Source: Candidatus Acetothermia bacterium
Lineage (GTDB): Bacteria > Bipolaricaulota > Bipolaricaulia > Bipolaricaulales > Bipolaricaulaceae
Direction: 5' to 3'
Assembly (NCBI GenBank): GCA_003562845.1
Contig: PWTL01000127.1
Coordinates: 1 to 42,136 of the forward strand
Length of the DNA: 42,136 bases
Both the position numbers and the translations under genes were made by a program. Shown piece after piece: positions 4,257-17,595 of the stretch; the first letter of the stretch is position 1; each line of letters opens with the position of its first letter. The notes under the pieces are model-generated. The model searched no databases and was not told the origin of the DNA. It saw only the letters and a program-made list of their open reading frames with translations.

Positions 4257-4592
4257 GTGCGCTGGATCGGACTACGTGAGGGAGCGCTGTTGGCGGCGGT
4301 GGCCTCGCTGGGGCTCTCCGCCTACGGCTGGGCGTGGCCCGTGGCGGTGTGGTGGGGCCTGGGCTGCGTGGCCGGGGCCAGGGCGGCCGGGTACCTCCTG
4401 GACAGGAACCTCCCCGATCGCCGGGGAGCGCTGTGGACAGGGGTAGCAGCGGCGGGCGGATACCTGCTGATGGCGGTGCTTGCAGTAGGCGGGATCTCCG
4501 CTGGACTCCCCGCCCTGGGTGTGGTCGCCGGGCTGGGCGCGGCTACGGGCGGCTTGTGGGCGCGGGCGTGGTCGATGGCCAGGAGTACATGA
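4257..4592 (+). CDS. AtpI-like small membrane protein of the ATP synthase operon
   Basis: A 111-residue, strongly hydrophobic protein with about four predicted membrane segments (roughly residues 8-24, 26-45, 58-80, 83-104). I do not recognise a sequence motif. Its position just before atpB, size and topology match AtpI/UncI or AtpZ-type proteins, which help assemble the c ring or carry Mg2+ in other bacteria. GTG start at 4257 with AGGAG at 4248-4252. Its TGA overlaps the atpB ATG (ATGA), indicating coupling. The functional label rests mainly on context. Confidence 0.6.
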   Translation: MRWIGLREGALLAAVASLGLSAYGWAWPVAVWWGLGCVAGARAAGYLLDRNLPDRRGALWTGVAAAGGYLLMAVLAVGGISAGLPALGVVAGLGAATGGLWARAWSMARST

Positions 4593-5314
4593 GCATGGAG
4601 AAGCTGGGAGAGGAGCTGATCGCCACCCTACAAGTGGGACCGTGGCGGATCTCGTTCGACCTTCCCGCCGTGGCCGTAGGCGTGGGTGTGACACTGGTGC
4701 TCACCGCGCTGGCACTGTGGCTGAGACGCGGGCTTCCTCGCGACCCCGAGGGACCGTTGTCCAAGCGCGCAAGCTTCGTGGCCGCTGTGCACGAAACAGC
4801 CGAGACGCAGCTGGTGGCAGGTTTCGAGCAACCGTTGCGTCAACGGCTCTTGCCCCTAATCGCTGTCTTGTTCTTCTACACATTATTCTGTAACTGGGTG
4901 GGTATCCTCCCCGTGCCGTACATCGTCTCCCCGACGCAGAACCTGAACATCCCCATGAGCTTGGCGATAATGGTCTACGTGCTGGCCCACTACTACGGGC
5001 TGCGAACCCGGGGAGTTCGCCTGCATTTGCGGAGCTACTTGCAGCCCCATCCCGCTCTCCTGCCGATGAACGTAGTCGGAGACATGGGACGGACATTGTC
5101 CCACGGATTCCGTCTGTTTGGGAACATCCTCGGCGGGGCCATCCTTACGACCCTGGTACCTACGCTGCTCGCCCGTGTGGTGTACTTCATCCCCGCTGCG
5201 CTGTTCTTCGGGGTGTTGCTGGACGGTTTCTTCGGTATTTTCGTGGGCACAATCCAGGCCTTGGTGTTCGCTTTGCTCGCCTCAGCGTACATCAACCTGG
5301 CCGTGAGTTCATAA
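4589..5314 (+). CDS. atpB: F-type ATP synthase subunit a
   Basis: Membrane subunit that forms the two ion half-channels against the c ring. It is 241 residues with five to six hydrophobic segments. GRTLSHGFRLFGNILGG carries the essential arginine (FRLFGN) and the conserved Asn, and the last helix pair reads GFFGIFVGTIQALVFALLAS. ATG 4589 overlaps the preceding stop; ATG 4595, nine bases after AGGAG (4581-4585), is an equally good start and would shorten the protein by two residues. An in-frame upstream extension to 4334 is only the shadow of the preceding gene. Next gene atpE is 11 bases downstream. Confidence 0.95.
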   Translation: MSMEKLGEELIATLQVGPWRISFDLPAVAVGVGVTLVLTALALWLRRGLPRDPEGPLSKRASFVAAVHETAETQLVAGFEQPLRQRLLPLIAVLFFYTLFCNWVGILPVPYIVSPTQNLNIPMSLAIMVYVLAHYYGLRTRGVRLHLRSYLQPHPALLPMNVVGDMGRTLSHGFRLFGNILGGAILTTLVPTLLARVVYFIPAALFFGVLLDGFFGIFVGTIQALVFALLASAYINLAVSS

Positions 5315-5325
5315 GGAGGCAACGG

Positions 5326-5577
5326 ATGGACATTAGTGGTGCAGATCTCATCACGGTGGCCAGGTACTTGGCTGCAGGGCTGTGCATGGGCATCGGTGCC
5401 GTCGGCCCCGCCATCGGTCAGGGCCTGGCGGCAGCCCACGCACTGGACGGCATGGCCCGCCAGCCGGAGATGGAGAACTCCCTCCTCAGGACGATGATCG
5501 TGGGCCAGGCAATCGCCGAATCCACAGGCATTTACTCCCTGGTGGTGGCCATCATTCTCATCTTCGTGGCCGGCTGA
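5326..5577 (+). CDS. atpE: F-type ATP synthase subunit c, Na+-binding type
   Basis: Two-helix hairpin of 83 residues that forms the rotor ring. Helix 1 has the glycine-rich MGIGAVGPAIGQG (21-33), the loop has the conserved ARQPE (44-48), and helix 2 carries the ion-binding carboxylate E65 in GQAIAESTGIYSLV (60-73). Gln32, Glu65, Ser66, Thr67 and Tyr70 are the residues that coordinate or support Na+ in the Ilyobacter tartaricus c ring, and they fall at the same numbers here. Na+ coupling is therefore inferred. AAGGAGG sits 6 bases before ATG 5326. It is preceded by atpB and followed after 10 bases by atpF. Confidence 0.96.
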   Translation: MDISGADLITVARYLAAGLCMGIGAVGPAIGQGLAAAHALDGMARQPEMENSLLRTMIVGQAIAESTGIYSLVVAIILIFVAG

Positions 5578-5587
5578 GGAGAGCAAG

Positions 5588-6103
5588 ATGCAGCTTGAAT
5601 GGGGCACCGTCGTAGAGAACATAAACTGGACCTGGGTGCTGAACCTGGTCAACTTCGGGCTCCTGCTATGGCTGCTCAAGCGCCTGCTGTTCCGTCCGGC
5701 GTCTGAGTGGCTGCAGGCCCGGCGGGAAGCGGAGCAACAGAGATTGGAGCGGGCTCAACAGGCAGAAGCACAAGGGGAGGCGCTCCTCCGCCAGCGCGAG
5801 GAGACACTGGCCGAAGCGAACCGCCGGGCGCGAGAGATCATGTCCCAAGCGGAGTCAGAGGCACAGCGTCTGCTGCGCCAGGCCCGCGACGACGCACGGC
5901 GTCAGGCACAACAGATAGTGGAGGACGGGCAGGATCAGGCGCGGAGAGTGGAGGAGGAAGCTCTCGTCGAACTCAGGCGGAGCTACGCCGAGCTGGTGGT
6001 GCAAGGCGCGGGGAGAGTGCTCAGGCGCGAAGTGCGGCCCGAGGACCATCACTCCCTCCTCGAAGAGCTCGGGCGCCAGCTTCCGGAGAGGTTGCTCTCT
6101 TGA
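5588..6103 (+). CDS. atpF: F-type ATP synthase subunit b
   Basis: Peripheral stalk subunit of 171 residues. It has one N-terminal membrane helix (about 14-34, WVLNLVNFGLLLWLLKRLLF), the usual FRPASEWLQARREA start of the stalk, and a long, highly charged Gln/Glu/Arg-rich coiled coil to the C-terminus, which binds delta. One b gene only, so a b2 homodimer is expected. GAGGAGA precedes the ATG. Its TGA overlaps the TTG start of atpH. Confidence 0.95.
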   Translation: MQLEWGTVVENINWTWVLNLVNFGLLLWLLKRLLFRPASEWLQARREAEQQRLERAQQAEAQGEALLRQREETLAEANRRAREIMSQAESEAQRLLRQARDDARRQAQQIVEDGQDQARRVEEEALVELRRSYAELVVQGAGRVLRREVRPEDHHSLLEELGRQLPERLLS

Positions 6104-6645
6104 GCGCTGCGACTGGCCACAGAGCCGTACACCGCTACGCGGAGGCCCTGTACGAGGCGGCGGCGGCAACCGGGGAGGAGGAGAGAATCGGAGGCGACCT
6201 GGCACGGTTGGCGCAGCTGTGGAAGGACATCCCCCAACTGCCCCTTCTCCTCACTCATCCCCTCACCCCCACCAAGGAGAAGGAATCAGTTCTTGAACAG
6301 ACGTTCGGCGGAGACCTCCACCCATACACCGTCAACGCGCTGCGACTGATGATCCGCCGGGGGCGCGGTGCGTTCCTGCCCCAGTTGCGCTCAGCGTTCT
6401 TGAGGGCGGCAGAGGAGAATGGCAGACTGGTACGGGCGATACTGCGCAGCGCTCGCCCCCTGAGCCCTGAGGATCTGAACAAGGTCAAGTCCCAACTACG
6501 TGGGGCCACGGGCAGGGCAGTTGTTCTCGAGGTGGAGCCCACGCCAGCTCTACTGGCCGGCGCGGAGCTGGAGGTGGCCGGACGTCGCCTCGACGTATCG
6601 CTCAGGCGACGTCTGGAGCGTCTGGCTGAGGAGTTGAAAGGGTAG
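6100..6645 (+). CDS. atpH: F-type ATP synthase subunit delta
   Basis: Connects the b stalk to the top of F1. It is 181 residues. The N-terminal helical domain begins [15 protein letters not shown], and the C-terminal domain includes [20 protein letters not shown] and the final [16 protein letters not shown]. The start is TTG at 6100 with GGAGAGG eight bases upstream and a 4-base overlap (TTGA) with the atpF stop; this gives the usual family length. The same frame is open back to 5707, but that part is the shadow of atpF. Confidence 0.93.
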
Positions 6646-6647
6646 CC

Positions 6648-8158
6648 ATGGCCAACATACGCAGAGACGAGATCACCGCCATCCTCCGCCAACAGATCGA
6701 GCGCCTGGACGCGGATCTGAACATGGAGGAAGTCGGCGTCGTCGTGGAGGTTGGGGACGGGATTGCCCGTGTTTACGGACTCCGCTCTGCCCTTGCCTCA
6801 GAGCTCCTACGGTTCCCAGGCGAAATATACGGGCTCGTTCTCGACCTGCAAGAGGACTCTGTGGGGGTTGCCCTGTTGGGGTCCGACAGTGAGATAAAGG
6901 AGGGAGACGAGGTCCGCAGGACTGGGGATATCCTATCCACCCCTGTAGGTCGGGGTTTCCTCGGGCGGGTGGTCGATCCGCTGGGGCGACCGCTGGACGG
7001 CGAAGCTGCGGTGGAGCCGGAAGGGCAACGCAACACCGACGCTAAGGCCCCGGGCGTGATCCGCAGGCAACCGGTGGACACTCCGGTGCAAACGGGAATC
7101 AAGTGTGTGGATGCCCTGACACCGATCGGGCGCGGCCAACGGGAGTTGATCATCGGCGACCGCCGTACGGGGAAGACCGCCCTGGCAGTGGACACGATCA
7201 TCAACCAGCGCGGCAAAGACCTTATGTGCGTGTACGTGGCTATCGGGCAGAAATCCTCAACCATCGCCAAGGTCGTGGACGCGCTCCGCCGGTACGAGGC
7301 GCTGGAGCACACCGTGGTCGTGGCAGCGCCGGCGGAATCCCCCACCCCACTACAGTACATTGCCCCGTACACCGGCTGTGCCATGGGGGAGTATTTCCGC
7401 GATCAAGGGGAAGACGCGCTGGTGGTGTTCGACGACCTGTCCAAGCACGCGGTCGCCTACAGGGAGATCTCGCTCCTCCTGCGCCGGCCTCCGGGCCGTG
7501 AGGCGTATCCGGGGGACATCTTCTATACACACTCACGCCTCCTGGAGAGAGCGGCCCGCCTGGCGGATGCCCATGGTGGGGGTTCGCTCACTGCGCTTCC
7601 TGTAGTGGAGACCAAGGCCGGCGACATTACCGCGTACATCCCCACCAACCTGATCTCTATCACCGACGGACAGATTTACCTAGAGGCCGATCTGTTCAAC
7701 AAGGGCCAACGACCGGCGATGAACGTGGGGCTGTCAGTGTCCCGAGTGGGTGGTGCTGCCCAAGTGCAGGCGATGAAGTCGGTGGCCGGACAGCTCAGGT
7801 TGGAACTGGCACAGTACCGAGACTTGGCTGCGTTCGCCGAGTTCGCCCAGGAGCTGGATGAGGCATCCCGCGCGCAACTGGCACGAGGAGAGCGGGTCAT
7901 GGAGATCCTCAAGCAGGATCAGTACGCACCGTTGCCGGTAGAGGAACAAGTGGCTGTGCTGTACGCGGCCGTCTCCGGACTGCTCGACGACCTGCCCCCG
8001 GAGGCGGCCACCTCCTTTGAGCGCGGCTTCGTGGGATTTCTCCGTGAGCATCGAGGGGAGCTTCTGCAGTCCATCGGCAGCACCGGAGAACTCTCGGACG
8101 AAGGGCGGCAGGCGCTGGAACAGGCCGCGCATAAGTTCAAGGAAGGATTTCGCGCCTG

Positions 8159-8159
<1 letters not shown>
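6648..8159 (+). CDS. atpA: F-type ATP synthase subunit alpha
   Basis: Non-catalytic nucleotide-binding subunit of F1, 503 residues, full length. It has the N-terminal beta barrel ([15 protein letters not shown]), the P loop GDRRTGKT (about 170-177), and [20 protein letters not shown] and the [20 protein letters not shown] signature. The C-terminal helical domain ends in FKEGFRA. The start is ATG 6648, two bases after atpH. Its stop overlaps the atpG start by one base (TGATG). Confidence 0.97.
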
Positions 8160-10413
<2,254 letters not shown>

Positions 10414-12054: not shown

Positions 12055-12315
12055 ATGGAAGTCCTAAAAGTCGCATCAACGTCCAACCCCAACGCTGTGG
12101 CCGGTGCCATCGCCGGAGCGCTGGAGACCGACAGTATCGTGGAAGCGCACGCGATCGGGGCCGGCGCTGTCAACCAGGCCGTCAAAGCTGTGGCCATCGC
12201 CCGTCGGCTTGTGGAGCGGGAAGGGGAGACGGAAGTGCGCGTTACCCCCGGCTTTATCGACGTGGAGATCGGCGGCGAGACCAAGACAGGTGTGCGCCTT
12301 ATCATCGAGAAGTAG
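12055..12315 (+). CDS. spoVS: Stage V sporulation protein S family (Alba-like) protein
   Basis: An 86-residue protein beginning MEVLKVASTSNPNAVAGAIA and including HAIGAGAVNQAVKAVAIARR, characteristic of SpoVS along its whole length. In Bacillus it affects septation and spore coat assembly; the fold is Alba-like, so nucleic-acid binding is suspected. SpoVS also occurs in non-sporulating thermophiles, so it does not prove sporulation. Strong AAGGAGG site and a strong promoter suggest high expression. The stop is directly followed by the argS start. Confidence 0.93.
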   Translation: MEVLKVASTSNPNAVAGAIAGALETDSIVEAHAIGAGAVNQAVKAVAIARRLVEREGETEVRVTPGFIDVEIGGETKTGVRLIIEK

Positions 12316-13956: not shown

Positions 13957-14879
13957 GCGCGGTGTGGAATCGTCTCCGCAGCGGCTTGGACCGGACTCGC
14001 CGGACCCTGTGGCAACCCTTGGAAGAAACGCTCAAGGGCAAGAGCCGTGTGGACGAGGAGTTCCTCGACCGTCTGGAGGAGATGCTGCTCGCTGCCGACG
14101 TCGGGGTGGAGGCCACCGAGGAGCTAGTGACCCCCTTTCGCGGGCAGAGCGCGCTCTCGTTTGCCGATTTGGAAAAGCTCTTGCGGGACAAGGTTGTACA
14201 GCTGCTCTCCCCTGCCCAAAGCCGACCCGTAGCGGCACCGACCGAAGACGGCCCCGCAGTGTACATGTTCGTAGGGGTAAACGGATCCGGGAAGACCACA
14301 ACTGTGGCCAAGGTGGGCAAAGCGCTGGCTGCGCAAGGAACCACAGTTGTTCTAGCGGCTGCGGACACGTTCCGCGCGGCGGCGGTGGAGCAGCTGACCG
14401 ATCTGGCACAGCGTACGGGGCTCAGCGTCGTCTCGCACCGTGCCGGGGCGGACCCGGGGGCGGTCGTGCACGACGCGGTGGAACACGCGCGCATACAAGG
14501 ATATGATGCTGTTTTAGTGGATACGGCCGGGCGCCTGCAGACAAAGCGCCCGCTAATGGAAGAGCTAGGCAAGGTGCGCCGGGTGGTGGAACGGCTGCAA
14601 GGGCGTCCGCCGGACGAACGGATTCTGGTGGTGGACGCTTCCGTCGGGCAAAACGCCATTTCCCAGGCAGAACTCTTCGACCAGGCCGTGGGCCTCACCG
14701 GCCTTGTGCTGACCAAGCTGGACGGGACGGCCAAAGGAGGAGCGATCCTGCCTATATGGCGTGCCTTGCGCGTCCCCATCTTCTGGGTAGGAGTGGGAGA
14801 GGGAATGGACGAGCTACAGTATTTCAGCGCAGAGGCGTATGCCCAAGCGCTAATTGGAGGGGACCATGGCACAGGCTGA
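13953..14879 (+). CDS. ftsY: Signal recognition particle receptor FtsY
   Basis: SRP GTPase that docks ribosome-SRP complexes at the membrane, 308 residues. The N domain covers about residues 1-95; there is almost no acidic A domain, as in many non-enteric bacteria. G-domain motifs are GVNGSGKTTTVAKV (G1), AADTFRAAAVEQL (insertion box), DTAGRLQ (G3), TKLDGTAKGG (G4) and FWVGVGEGMDEL (closing motif). The GTG start at 13953 overlaps the argS stop (GTGA), with GAGGAG upstream. Its 3' end overlaps ppdK by 14 bases. Confidence 0.96.
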   Translation: MSAVWNRLRSGLDRTRRTLWQPLEETLKGKSRVDEEFLDRLEEMLLAADVGVEATEELVTPFRGQSALSFADLEKLLRDKVVQLLSPAQSRPVAAPTEDGPAVYMFVGVNGSGKTTTVAKVGKALAAQGTTVVLAAADTFRAAAVEQLTDLAQRTGLSVVSHRAGADPGAVVHDAVEHARIQGYDAVLVDTAGRLQTKRPLMEELGKVRRVVERLQGRPPDERILVVDASVGQNAISQAELFDQAVGLTGLVLTKLDGTAKGGAILPIWRALRVPIFWVGVGEGMDELQYFSAEAYAQALIGGDHGTG

Positions 14880-17595
14880 GAAGTACGTATACCGCTTCGG
14901 GGGCGGAAAGGCCGACGGCGGAGCGGACATGAAGATGCTGCTCGGGGGAAAGGGTGCTAACCTGGGAGAGATGGCCCGCCTGGGAATCCCGGTTCCCCCA
15001 GGATTCACCATCACCACCGAGGCCTGCCGCTACTACCAACAGCACGAGGGCCACTACCCTGCGCAGCTGGAGCAGCAGGTGCGCGAGGGCATCCAGCACC
15101 TGGAGGAAGCAACCGGGCGCAAGTTCGGAGACCCCAAGCATCCGCTTTTGGTCTCTGTTCGTTCCGGGGCGGCGGCCTCCATGCCGGGGATGATGGACAC
15201 CGTGCTCAACCTGGGGTTGAACGACGACGTAGCCGACGGGCTGTCCGCCCAAACTGACGCCCGCTTCGCCTTCGATGCCTATCGGCGGTTCGTGGCCATG
15301 TACGGCTCGGTGGTTCTGGGAGTGAGGGACACCTCCGGTTCCGGAGTCGATCCGTTCCACGAGGCCCTGGACAATCTGAAAGAGGAGCGCGACGCCCGCA
15401 CCGATCTGGACCTGACCACGGGAGATCTCCAGGAGCTCGTGCAGCGATACAAGACGGCCCTCACGGAGGCGGGTAAGTCCCTCCCCGAAGAGCCTTGGGA
15501 CCAGCTGTGGGGCGCAATTGCCGCTGTGTTCAGCTCGTGGGACAACCCCCGGGCGCGGGTGTACAGGCGGATGCACCACATCCCCGACACCTGGGGAACG
15601 GCGGTGAACGTTCAAGCCATGGTGTTCGGTAACCTGGACGAGACTTCCGGGACTGGGGTCATGTTCACCCGCGACCCGGCCACAGGAGAGAACCGCCTGT
15701 ACGGCGAATACCTTCTCTCCGCCCAAGGAGAGGACGTCGTCGCCGGCACCCGCACCCCCCAACCGATAGCCTCGGCGCAGAAGTCCGACTCAACACAGGT
15801 CTCCCTCGAGGAGACTATGCCCGAGATCTACCAACAGCTGGTGGAGGTACGCGACCTCCTGGAACGTCACTACCGGGACATGCAGGACACCGAGTTCACC
15901 ATCGAGCGAGGCACACTGTACGTGCTGCAGACTCGTGCCGGAAAGCGCACGGGGTTTGCCTCCGTGCGCATCGCGGTGGAGATGGTGGAGGAAGGGCTCA
16001 TCTCTGAGGACGAGGCCATCCTCAGGCTGGAGCCCGCTGAACAACTGTCCCAGCTTCTGCAGCCCATCTTCGACCCGGCGGAGAAGGATGATTCACTGGT
16101 CTTGGCCAAGGGGCTCCCCGCGGGGCCCGGCGCGGCTTGCGGCCGGGTGGCGCTGACCGCGGATGCAGCTGTGCGCATGTCTGCCGACGGTGAGCCGGTG
16201 GTGCTTGTGCGCCATGAGACATCGCCCGATGACATCGCCGGCATGGCCGCCTCCGAAGGAATCCTCACTTCCCGCGGAGGGATGACCTCGCACGCGGCAG
16301 TGGTCGCTCGGCAGATAGGCAAGGTGGCCGTCGTGGGCTGTGACGGGCTGACGATCGACTACAAGGCCCGCGAGGTGCGCGTACAGAACAAGACCTTCCA
16401 GGAAGGCGAGTGGCTGTCCTTCGACGGCACTACTGGAGAGGTTCTGGGGGGGAAGGTCGCCACCCGCGCCTCCGAGGTCCTGCAAGTGTTGATAGACAGG
16501 ACACTCAACGCAGATGACGCCCCAGTATACCGCTTGTACGACAAGCTCATGAGCTGGGCCGATGAGCGGCGCAGACTGGGGGTGCGGGCCAATGCGGACA
16601 AGGCGGAACAAGCCTCGGCTGCGTTGGCTTTTGGAGCGGAGGGCATTGGGCTATGCCGTACAGAACATATGTTCTTCGGAGAAGAGCGCATACCCTATGT
16701 TCAGCAGGCCATCATCACCGAGGACCGCCGAGCGAGGGACGAGGCACTGCGGCGCCTGCTGGAGATGCAGACAGATGATTTCGCCGGCATTCTGCGGGTT
16801 ATGAACGACAAACCGGTGATCATAAGGCTGCTCGATCCGCCGATGCACGAGTTCCTGCCCAGCGAGGAGGAGAGCATCGCCGACCTCGCCCGCAGGTTCC
16901 AAGTCGAGCTCTCCGATCTCAAGCAACGCATAGGAGCGTTACACGAGTTCAACCCCATGCTCGGGCACAGAGGTTGCCGGTTGGGGATCACCAACCCCGA
17001 GCTATACGACATGCAGGTGGAAGCGATCTTCCGTGCTGCGGTGGGCCTCGCCCGCGAGGGCCTGAACCCGCGGCCGTATGTCATGGTCCCGCTCGTGGGC
17101 CTGGCCAGCGAGATGCGTGCAGTGCGCCGCCGCGTGGACAGCATCGCCCGGCGCACGATGGACGAAGAAGGCGTGGAGGTGGCATACAAGGTGGGGACGA
17201 TGGTCGAGGTGCCTCGGGCGTGCATGGTCGCCGACAGCATTGCCCAAGAGGCGCAGTTCTTCTCCTTCGGCACCAACGACCTCACGCAGATGGCGTTCGG
17301 GTTCTCCCGTGACGATGCCGGGAAGTTCATCCGCCAATATCTGGATGACAGCATCCTGCAGGTGGACCCCTTCCAGACTATCGACCGTCCCGGGGTCGGC
17401 GAGTTGATGAAGATCGCGACCGCCAAGGGGCGAGAAACTGCCCCGGAGCTCTCGATCGGCATCTGCGGGGAGCACGGCGGCGAGTCAGGCTCGGTGCAGT
17501 TCTGTCACGAGATAGGGCTGGATTACGTTTCTGCCTCTCCCTTCCGCATCCCCATCGCCCGTCTGGCGGCCGCCCAAGCAGCGCTCAAGGAGTGA
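14866..17595 (+). CDS. ppdK: Pyruvate, phosphate dikinase
   Basis: Interconverts pyruvate + ATP + Pi and phosphoenolpyruvate + AMP + PPi; in anaerobes it can serve glycolysis or gluconeogenesis. It is 909 residues, full length. The N-terminal ATP-grasp domain starts GGKGANLGEMARLGIPVPPG; the central swivelling domain has the phosphorylated histidine H476 in GGMTSHAAVVARQ; the C-terminal TIM barrel binds PEP/pyruvate, with GLCRTEHMFF, TMVEVPRACM, SFGTNDLTQM and catalytic C867 in GICGEHGG. ATG 14866 has GGAGGGG just upstream; an in-frame TTG at 14854 is less likely. It overlaps the ftsY end. Confidence 0.97.
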   Translation: MAQAEKYVYRFGGGKADGGADMKMLLGGKGANLGEMARLGIPVPPGFTITTEACRYYQQHEGHYPAQLEQQVREGIQHLEEATGRKFGDPKHPLLVSVRSGAAASMPGMMDTVLNLGLNDDVADGLSAQTDARFAFDAYRRFVAMYGSVVLGVRDTSGSGVDPFHEALDNLKEERDARTDLDLTTGDLQELVQRYKTALTEAGKSLPEEPWDQLWGAIAAVFSSWDNPRARVYRRMHHIPDTWGTAVNVQAMVFGNLDETSGTGVMFTRDPATGENRLYGEYLLSAQGEDVVAGTRTPQPIASAQKSDSTQVSLEETMPEIYQQLVEVRDLLERHYRDMQDTEFTIERGTLYVLQTRAGKRTGFASVRIAVEMVEEGLISEDEAILRLEPAEQLSQLLQPIFDPAEKDDSLVLAKGLPAGPGAACGRVALTADAAVRMSADGEPVVLVRHETSPDDIAGMAASEGILTSRGGMTSHAAVVARQIGKVAVVGCDGLTIDYKAREVRVQNKTFQEGEWLSFDGTTGEVLGGKVATRASEVLQVLIDRTLNADDAPVYRLYDKLMSWADERRRLGVRANADKAEQASAALAFGAEGIGLCRTEHMFFGEERIPYVQQAIITEDRRARDEALRRLLEMQTDDFAGILRVMNDKPVIIRLLDPPMHEFLPSEEESIADLARRFQVELSDLKQRIGALHEFNPMLGHRGCRLGITNPELYDMQVEAIFRAAVGLAREGLNPRPYVMVPLVGLASEMRAVRRRVDSIARRTMDEEGVEVAYKVGTMVEVPRACMVADSIAQEAQFFSFGTNDLTQMAFGFSRDDAGKFIRQYLDDSILQVDPFQTIDRPGVGELMKIATAKGRETAPELSIGICGEHGGESGSVQFCHEIGLDYVSASPFRIPIARLAAAQAALKE

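What the first reader, a model, noticed from the sequence alone, without database searches (positions are those of the whole stretch)
5326..5577. ATP synthase c subunit carries a complete Na+-binding signature
Seen: Gln32, Glu65, Ser66, Thr67 and Tyr70 in AtpE, in the contexts AIGQG and AESTGIYSLV. Known: these residues at these positions form the Na+ site of the Ilyobacter tartaricus c ring. Inference: this organism makes ATP from a sodium gradient, which usually implies a primary Na+ pump (Rnf, decarboxylase or Na+-pyrophosphatase) elsewhere in the genome.
Basis: partly seen in the sequence, partly recalled or inferred. Interest (0 to 1): 0.72.

Follow-up and report, generated by a model that had tools for sequence, protein, structure and literature searches.

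The report
Sodium-type ATP synthase rotor in Bipolaricaulota
This uncultured bacterium's ATP synthase carries the complete sodium-binding site of known sodium-driven enzymes and its genome encodes a matching sodium-type pyrophosphatase pump, so it very probably runs on a sodium cycle; the enzyme is of a known kind, but one key residue has switched repeatedly in this phylum, with hints of a link to alkaline habitats.

Summary
Confirmed. AtpE (5326-5577) has P28, Q32, E65, S66, T67 and Y70 at the Ilyobacter positions (I replaces V at 63, a backbone ligand); it is 49% identical to the solved I. tartaricus c subunit and sits in an ordinary F-type operon (atpB-E-F-H-A-G-D). The window is from a Bipolaricaulota (Acetothermia) MAG, 85% complete. 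The predicted partner pumps exist: a membrane pyrophosphatase closest to the Thermotoga Na+ pump, and an Mbh hydrogenase with an Mrp-type Na+ module. Rnf is absent here and in 24 same-family genomes; a decarboxylase beta subunit was found in the sister genome but not here. Across 100 genomes of the phylum, all 56 with the Na+ c motif and a readable pyrophosphatase motif carry the K+-dependent pyrophosphatase type. On the tree Gln is derived from Glu in the window's clade, and it occurs in two other lineages. Named Gln32 MAGs come from soda lakes (pH 10), an Oman well (pH 11) and apparently Lost City; one Lost City MAG keeps Glu32. New member of a known kind. Na+ coupling is inferred, not measured.

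The parts
5326..5577 (+). atpE, F-type c subunit, 83 aa, complete Na+-site residues
5407..5409 (+). Pro28 codon of AtpE
5419..5421 (+). Gln32 codon (CAG); Glu in most of the phylum
5518..5526 (+). Glu65-Ser66-Thr67 codons; Na+ ligands Glu65 and Ser66, Thr67 holds the coordinating water
   Evidence: ligand roles from PMC3692424
5533..5535 (+). Tyr70 codon; hydrogen-bond donor to Glu65
   Evidence: role from PMC3692424
5313..5319 (+). AAGGAGG ribosome-binding site of atpE
4257..4592 (+). small membrane protein in the atpI position; conserved in the nearest relatives, no Pfam or NCBIfam match
4595..5314 (+). atpB, a subunit, with the stator Arg in FRLFGN (start ATG at 4589 or 4595)
5588..6103 (+). 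atpF, b subunit
6100..6645 (+). atpH, delta subunit (TTG start assumed)
6648..8159 (+). atpA, alpha subunit
   Evidence: TIGR00962, 760 bits
8159..9010 (+). atpG, gamma subunit
9007..10413 (+). atpD, beta subunit; the operon ends here without atpC

Best explanation
AtpE forms the rotor ring of an F-type ATP synthase whose ion sites bind Na+: Glu65, Ser66, Gln32, the backbone carbonyl of residue 63 and a water held by Thr67, locked by Tyr70 (shown: the residues; inferred: the binding, from 1yce and 3zk1). Na+ flowing in past the stator Arg of AtpB turns the ring and makes ATP. The Na+ gradient is probably built by the membrane pyrophosphatase (Na+-type signature) and by an Mbh hydrogenase with an Mrp-type Na+ module that oxidises ferredoxin (shown: genes and residues; inferred: ion and direction). 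The enzyme may also run backwards as an ATP-driven Na+ exporter.
For: Complete signature aligned to solved Na+ rings. Pyrophosphatase on C81 with GNTTAA (K+-dependent) and Glu at 6.53, none at 6.57; best solved relative is the T. maritima Na+ pump at 595 bits against 420 for the plant H+ pump and 353 for the K+-insensitive H+ pump (classification from PMC6882861). Mbh cluster with MnhE, MrpF, MnhG, MbhE, MnhB, NuoK-type, antiporter, small and 30-kDa subunits on C96, and a large subunit with both NiFe cysteine pairs at the end of C32; in Pyrococcus MbhABC is the Na+ module that feeds a Na+-dependent ATP synthase (PMC8415708). In the phylum 56 of 56 genomes with the Na+ c motif and a readable pyrophosphatase motif have the K+-dependent type; 10 of 13 without the c motif have only the K+-independent type. 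G015 and G020 have no ATP synthase and only the K+-independent pyrophosphatase, while congeners G005 and G023 have both Na+-type parts. The g18 lineage, with Ile32/Phe63, has only a K+-independent pyrophosphatase.
Against: No biochemistry from any Bipolaricaulota. K+-dependent pyrophosphatases with Glu6.53 also include Na+/H+ pumps and an H+ group (PMC6882861). The phylum co-occurrence is not corrected for kinship; only a handful of lineages carry the contrast, and some of those use a V-type ATPase. A two-carboxylate N-ATPase ring with Thr and Tyr is H+-specific (PMC5376962), although it has Met where this one has Thr67.
Confidence: 0.88

Rival explanations
1. The same Na+ ring works mainly in reverse: the enzyme hydrolyses fermentation ATP to pump Na+ out, as a salt-export and gradient-making pump.
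For: In this family epsilon is about 85-97 aa and lacks the C-terminal helices that brake hydrolysis, while relatives in families f2 and f7 have full-length epsilon. A fermentative life is proposed for a relative, B. anaerobius (PMC6092417).
Against: The genome also has two other candidate Na+ pumps, Mbh and the pyrophosphatase, which make an ATP-driven pump less needed. Truncated epsilon alone does not set direction.
Confidence: 0.3
2. The rotor is dual or H+-coupled in the cell: the site can hold Na+, but protons drive it under natural conditions.
For: Promiscuous or H+-using rings with near-complete signatures exist (B. pseudomallei N-ATPase, PMC5376962; Methanosarcina acetivorans, own knowledge). 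Published accounts of the phylum speak of a proton motive force (PMC6092417).
Against: Full Ser66/Thr67/Tyr70 set, matching Na+-type pyrophosphatase, and nearest relatives from soda lakes at pH 10 and 70-400 g/L salt (PMC6146748), where an inward proton gradient is hard to hold.
Confidence: 0.1

Closest known systems
Ilyobacter tartaricus / Propionigenium-type Na+ F-ATP synthase c ring (1yce, 2wgm)
   Same: Gln32, Glu65, Ser66, Thr67, Tyr70 and Pro28; 49% identity over 73 residues
   Different: Ile for Val at 63; partner pumps found here are a pyrophosphatase and Mbh, not a decarboxylase; atpC lies outside the operon and is short
Fusobacterium nucleatum two-carboxylate Na+ c ring (3zk1, PMC3692424)
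   Same: Highest identity of the solved rings compared residue by residue (55% over 69 residues); the state of most Bipolaricaulota (62 of 69 genomes)
   Different: Gln, not Glu, at position 32, so no second carboxylate
Acetobacterium woodii c2/c3 (4bem)
   Same: Gln32, Glu65, Thr67, Tyr70, Na+ ring of an anaerobe
   Different: Thr66 instead of Ser66; hybrid ring with a c1 hairpin pair; Rnf as pump
Pyrococcus furiosus Mbh plus Na+ A-type ATP synthase
   Same: Mbh with Mrp-type Na+ module paired with a Na+-type rotary enzyme
   Different: Here the rotary enzyme is F-type and a Na+-type pyrophosphatase is added

Membership tests
Na+-coupled F-type ATP synthase (one-carboxylate, Ilyobacter type) | Gln32, Glu65, Ser/Thr66, Thr67, Tyr70 in the c subunit | tested here: met
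Na+-coupled F-type ATP synthase (one-carboxylate, Ilyobacter type) | F-type subunit set a, c, b, delta, alpha, gamma, beta, epsilon | tested here: met
   seven genes in the operon; epsilon on another contig (C56)
Na+-coupled F-type ATP synthase (one-carboxylate, Ilyobacter type) | Na+ binding, Na+ protection from DCCD, Na+-driven ATP synthesis | not testable with these tools
   needs protein
Two-carboxylate Na+ rotor (Fusobacterium type) | Glu at position 32 besides Glu65 | tested here: not met
   CAG (Gln) at 5419-5421; Glu in most relatives
N-type ATPase | scores over the curated cut-offs of the alt_F1F0 models | tested here: not met
   c 78.8 of 130.85, beta 608.6 of 752, alpha 633.3 of 750.5 bits
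N-type ATPase | no delta gene, operon order starting with beta and epsilon | tested here: not met
   atpH present, order B-E-F-H-A-G-D; the N-type order is from own knowledge
Na+-translocating membrane pyrophosphatase (partner pump) | K+-dependence motif GNTTAA and Glu at 6.53 without Glu at 6.57 | tested here: met
   criteria from PMC6882861, not exclusive to Na+ pumps
Mbh energy-converting hydrogenase (partner pump) | Mrp-type Na+ module plus NiFe large subunit with both cysteine pairs | tested here: met
   operon split over contigs C96 and C32, so its unity is inferred from G005
Rnf complex | RnfA/RnfE membrane subunits (PF02508) | tested here: not met
   none in G000 or 24 same-family genomes, present in other families

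The most novel reading that the evidence does not exclude
Within one bacterial phylum the Na+ rotor has switched from the two-carboxylate (Glu32) to the one-carboxylate (Gln32) site several times, and the switch is an adaptation to alkaline habitats: a second glutamate that must stay protonated is a liability near pH 10-11, so Gln replaces it. Conversely one lineage lost the Na+ site (Ile32/Phe63) and has only a K+-independent, H+-type pyrophosphatase, so the coupling ion of rotor and pump changed together.
Probability: 0.35. Interest if true: 0.66.

Novelty: new member of a known kind. Interest (0 to 1): 0.45.

Why it matters
Published accounts describe energy conservation in Bipolaricaulota as proton-based (B. 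anaerobius, PMC6092417) or leave H+ versus Na+ open (PMC11287216); Ca. Acetothermum was given V-type ATPases and no F-type (PMC3267732). These data say that most of the phylum has a Na+-type F rotor with a matching pyrophosphatase, and they give natural Glu32/Gln32/Ile32 variants of one rotor with which the meaning of the second carboxylate can be tested directly.

Tried and rejected
Missing epsilon: at first it looked as if the enzyme lacked epsilon, but atpC lies on contig C56 between recO and fabF, as in relatives. N-type ATPase: rejected by cut-offs and gene order. Rnf as the pump: not found. Decarboxylase: not found in this MAG, found in G001 and a few others, so gap or true absence is open. 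Statistical proof of rotor and pump co-variation: Fisher p about 8e-10 but not corrected for kinship, so used as support only; the motif search also missed 14 c-positive genomes with no readable pyrophosphatase motif, some because of incomplete assembly or motif variants. Habitat link of Gln32: only three lineages, one (MAG-1260) assigned to Lost City only from its numbering next to MAG-1503 (its name is not in the paper text), UBA7950 unknown, and MAG-1503 from Lost City keeps Glu32. Low salt and low pH for the Ile32 lineage (two Alinen sediment MAGs) could not be checked in a paper.

Full report
Observation. The reading frame 5326-5577 encodes an 83-residue F-type c subunit. Counting confirms Pro28, Gln32, Ile63, Ala64, Glu65, Ser66, Thr67 and Tyr70. 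Against solved chains, positions line up without renumbering with Ilyobacter tartaricus 1yce (P/Q/V/A/E/S/T/Y, 36 of 73 identical), Fusobacterium nucleatum 3zk1 (Glu at 32, otherwise the same, 38 of 69) and Acetobacterium woodii c2 (Thr at 66). The proton ring of Spirulina, 2wie, shares Gln32, Glu65 and Tyr70 but has Phe63, Ala66 and Leu67. So Ser66 and Thr67 carry the weight of the prediction, and both are here. Residue 63 contributes only its backbone carbonyl (PMC3692424), so Ile for Val should not matter.

Setting. The window is contig C87 of an 85%-complete, 1.45-Mb MAG. Its nearest named relatives are Candidatus Acetothermia/Bipolaricaulota MAGs. The operon is atpI-position gene, atpB, E, F, H, A, G, D. 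AtpB keeps the stator arginine in FRLFGN. The N-type ATPase models stay below their cut-offs. This is the only c-type subunit found in the genome.

Epsilon. atpC is not in the operon. It lies on contig C56 between recO and fabF, a place shared by other families of the class. In the window's family it is short (open frames of about 85-97 residues where the frame is clean) and ends after the beta-sandwich; in families f2 and f7 it is about 131-141 residues with the C-terminal helices. The short form should lack the helical brake on hydrolysis (inference).

Pumps. The membrane pyrophosphatase on C81 has GNTTAA and Glu at 6.53, none at 6.57. Its best solved relative is the T. maritima Na+ pump at 595 bits, against 420 for the plant H+ pump and 353 for the K+-insensitive H+ pump. 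By PMC6882861 this fits Na+ pumps, but Na+/H+ pumps and one H+ group share the features. An Mbh hydrogenase is present: MnhE, MrpF, MnhG, MbhE, MnhB, NuoK-type, antiporter, small subunit and 30-kDa subunit run off the start of C96, and the large subunit with RICGIC and DPCMCC sits at the end of C32. The same genes are contiguous in G005. In Pyrococcus, MbhABC carries the Na+ path and feeds a Na+-dependent ATP synthase (PMC8415708). Rnf subunits are absent from this genome and the 24 same-family genomes searched but present in other families. The decarboxylase beta subunit was not found here but occurs in G001 of the same genus.

Co-variation. In 100 genomes of the phylum, the motif A-I/V-x-E-S/T-T-G-I/V-Y of a Na+-type c subunit was found in 70, the K+-dependent pyrophosphatase motif in 59 and the K+-independent one in 17. 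Of 56 c-positive genomes with a readable pyrophosphatase motif, 56 have the K+-dependent type; of 13 c-negative ones, 10 have only the K+-independent type. Kinship is not corrected for. The clearest contrasts: G015 and G020 have no ATP synthase and only the K+-independent pyrophosphatase, while congeners G005 and G023 have the Na+-type c ring and Na+-type pyrophosphatase. The closed genome of B. anaerobius was reported to lack ATP synthase (PMC6092417). The g18 lineage (G030, G033) has Ile32 and Phe63 in its c subunit and only a K+-independent pyrophosphatase; after A. woodii c1 its best solved matches are cyanobacterial and chloroplast H+ rings.

Position 32. Among 69 genomes matched over both helices, 62 have Glu32 and 7 have Gln32: G000, G001, G004, G007, G039, G071, G076. 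A tree of AtpB, F, A, D and G (48 rows, most branches strongly supported) places the window's Gln32 clade of four inside a family otherwise Glu32, with one change in the family and four changes of position 32 (Gln, Glu, Ile) in the phylum (same count for Bipolaricaulota in a quicker tree). So Gln32 here is derived from the two-carboxylate state, and Gln32 is found in two further lineages (L016/L023 and L051), where the direction of change is less certain.

Habitat. The named members of the window's clade are T3Sed10, CSSed11 and B1Sed10 MAGs, which match the sample names of Siberian soda-lake sediments at pH 10 and 70-400 g/L salt (PMC6146748). L023 is named after well NSHQ14, pH 11.1-11.3 in 2017 (PMC8115248). 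L051, MAG-1260, appears by its numbering to belong with Lost City MAG-1503 (vent fluids pH 9-11, PMC9469722); this is an inference. MAG-1503 itself keeps Glu32 (L021), against the rule. The idea has a physical basis: Glu32 must stay protonated, E. coli mutants with a second carboxylate become pH-sensitive, and an earlier proposal called it a high-pH sensor, which the F. nucleatum authors read differently. I hold this at about one in three.

What is shown and what is inferred. Shown: residues, operon, presence of the pyrophosphatase and Mbh genes and their signatures, distribution of Gln/Glu/Ile32, tree. Inferred: Na+ binding, Na+-driven ATP synthesis, direction of the pumps, alkaline adaptation. 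The main warning is the B. pseudomallei N-type ring, H+-specific in spite of two Glu, Thr and Tyr, but with Met at the Thr67 position (PMC5376962).

Verdict. As a Na+ F-type rotor it is a new member of a known kind; the repeated change at position 32 and its possible tie to pH are the part that deserves follow-up.

Noticed in passing
G000:C56:3860-4093 (L149:3839-4129, - strand) and L002-L011: atpC lies outside the atp operon, between recO and fabF, in several families; in the window's family it has lost its C-terminal helical domain.
   Followed up: partly
window 14866-17595: Pyruvate, phosphate dikinase (1266 bits, TIGR01828) a few genes downstream of the atp operon; with the pyrophosphatase it suggests a pyrophosphate-linked energy economy.
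   Followed up: no
L202 (G015), L097 (G020), L156 (G016), L163 (G023): A second pyrophosphatase type, K+-independent by motif (GNTSKA), with Asp instead of Glu at 6.53 (DLVDSY); it is the only one in the ATP-synthase-less genomes.
   Followed up: partly
L041, L044, L045, L187 (c subunits): Ile32/Phe63 with ETTxxY kept: a c subunit that looks converted from Na+ to H+ use.
   Followed up: partly
L176, L179, L180: In families with a V-type ATPase, frr lies on the same stretch as the V-type genes, as it does beside the F-type operon here; possible replacement of one enzyme by the other at one site.
   Followed up: no
L050:1668-2486: A Planctomycetota locus with a c-type protein of three hairpin pairs, one of them with Thr in place of the ion-binding Glu, beside a normal two-carboxylate c subunit.
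   Followed up: no
L025, L026, L028: MAGs titled Neomarinimicrobiota and Caldisericota whose atp operons fall inside Bipolaricaulota: probably mislabelled records.
   Followed up: no
window 12055-12315 and 667-2073: A SpoVS protein and a short HerA-type helicase in a phylum not known to form spores.
   Followed up: no
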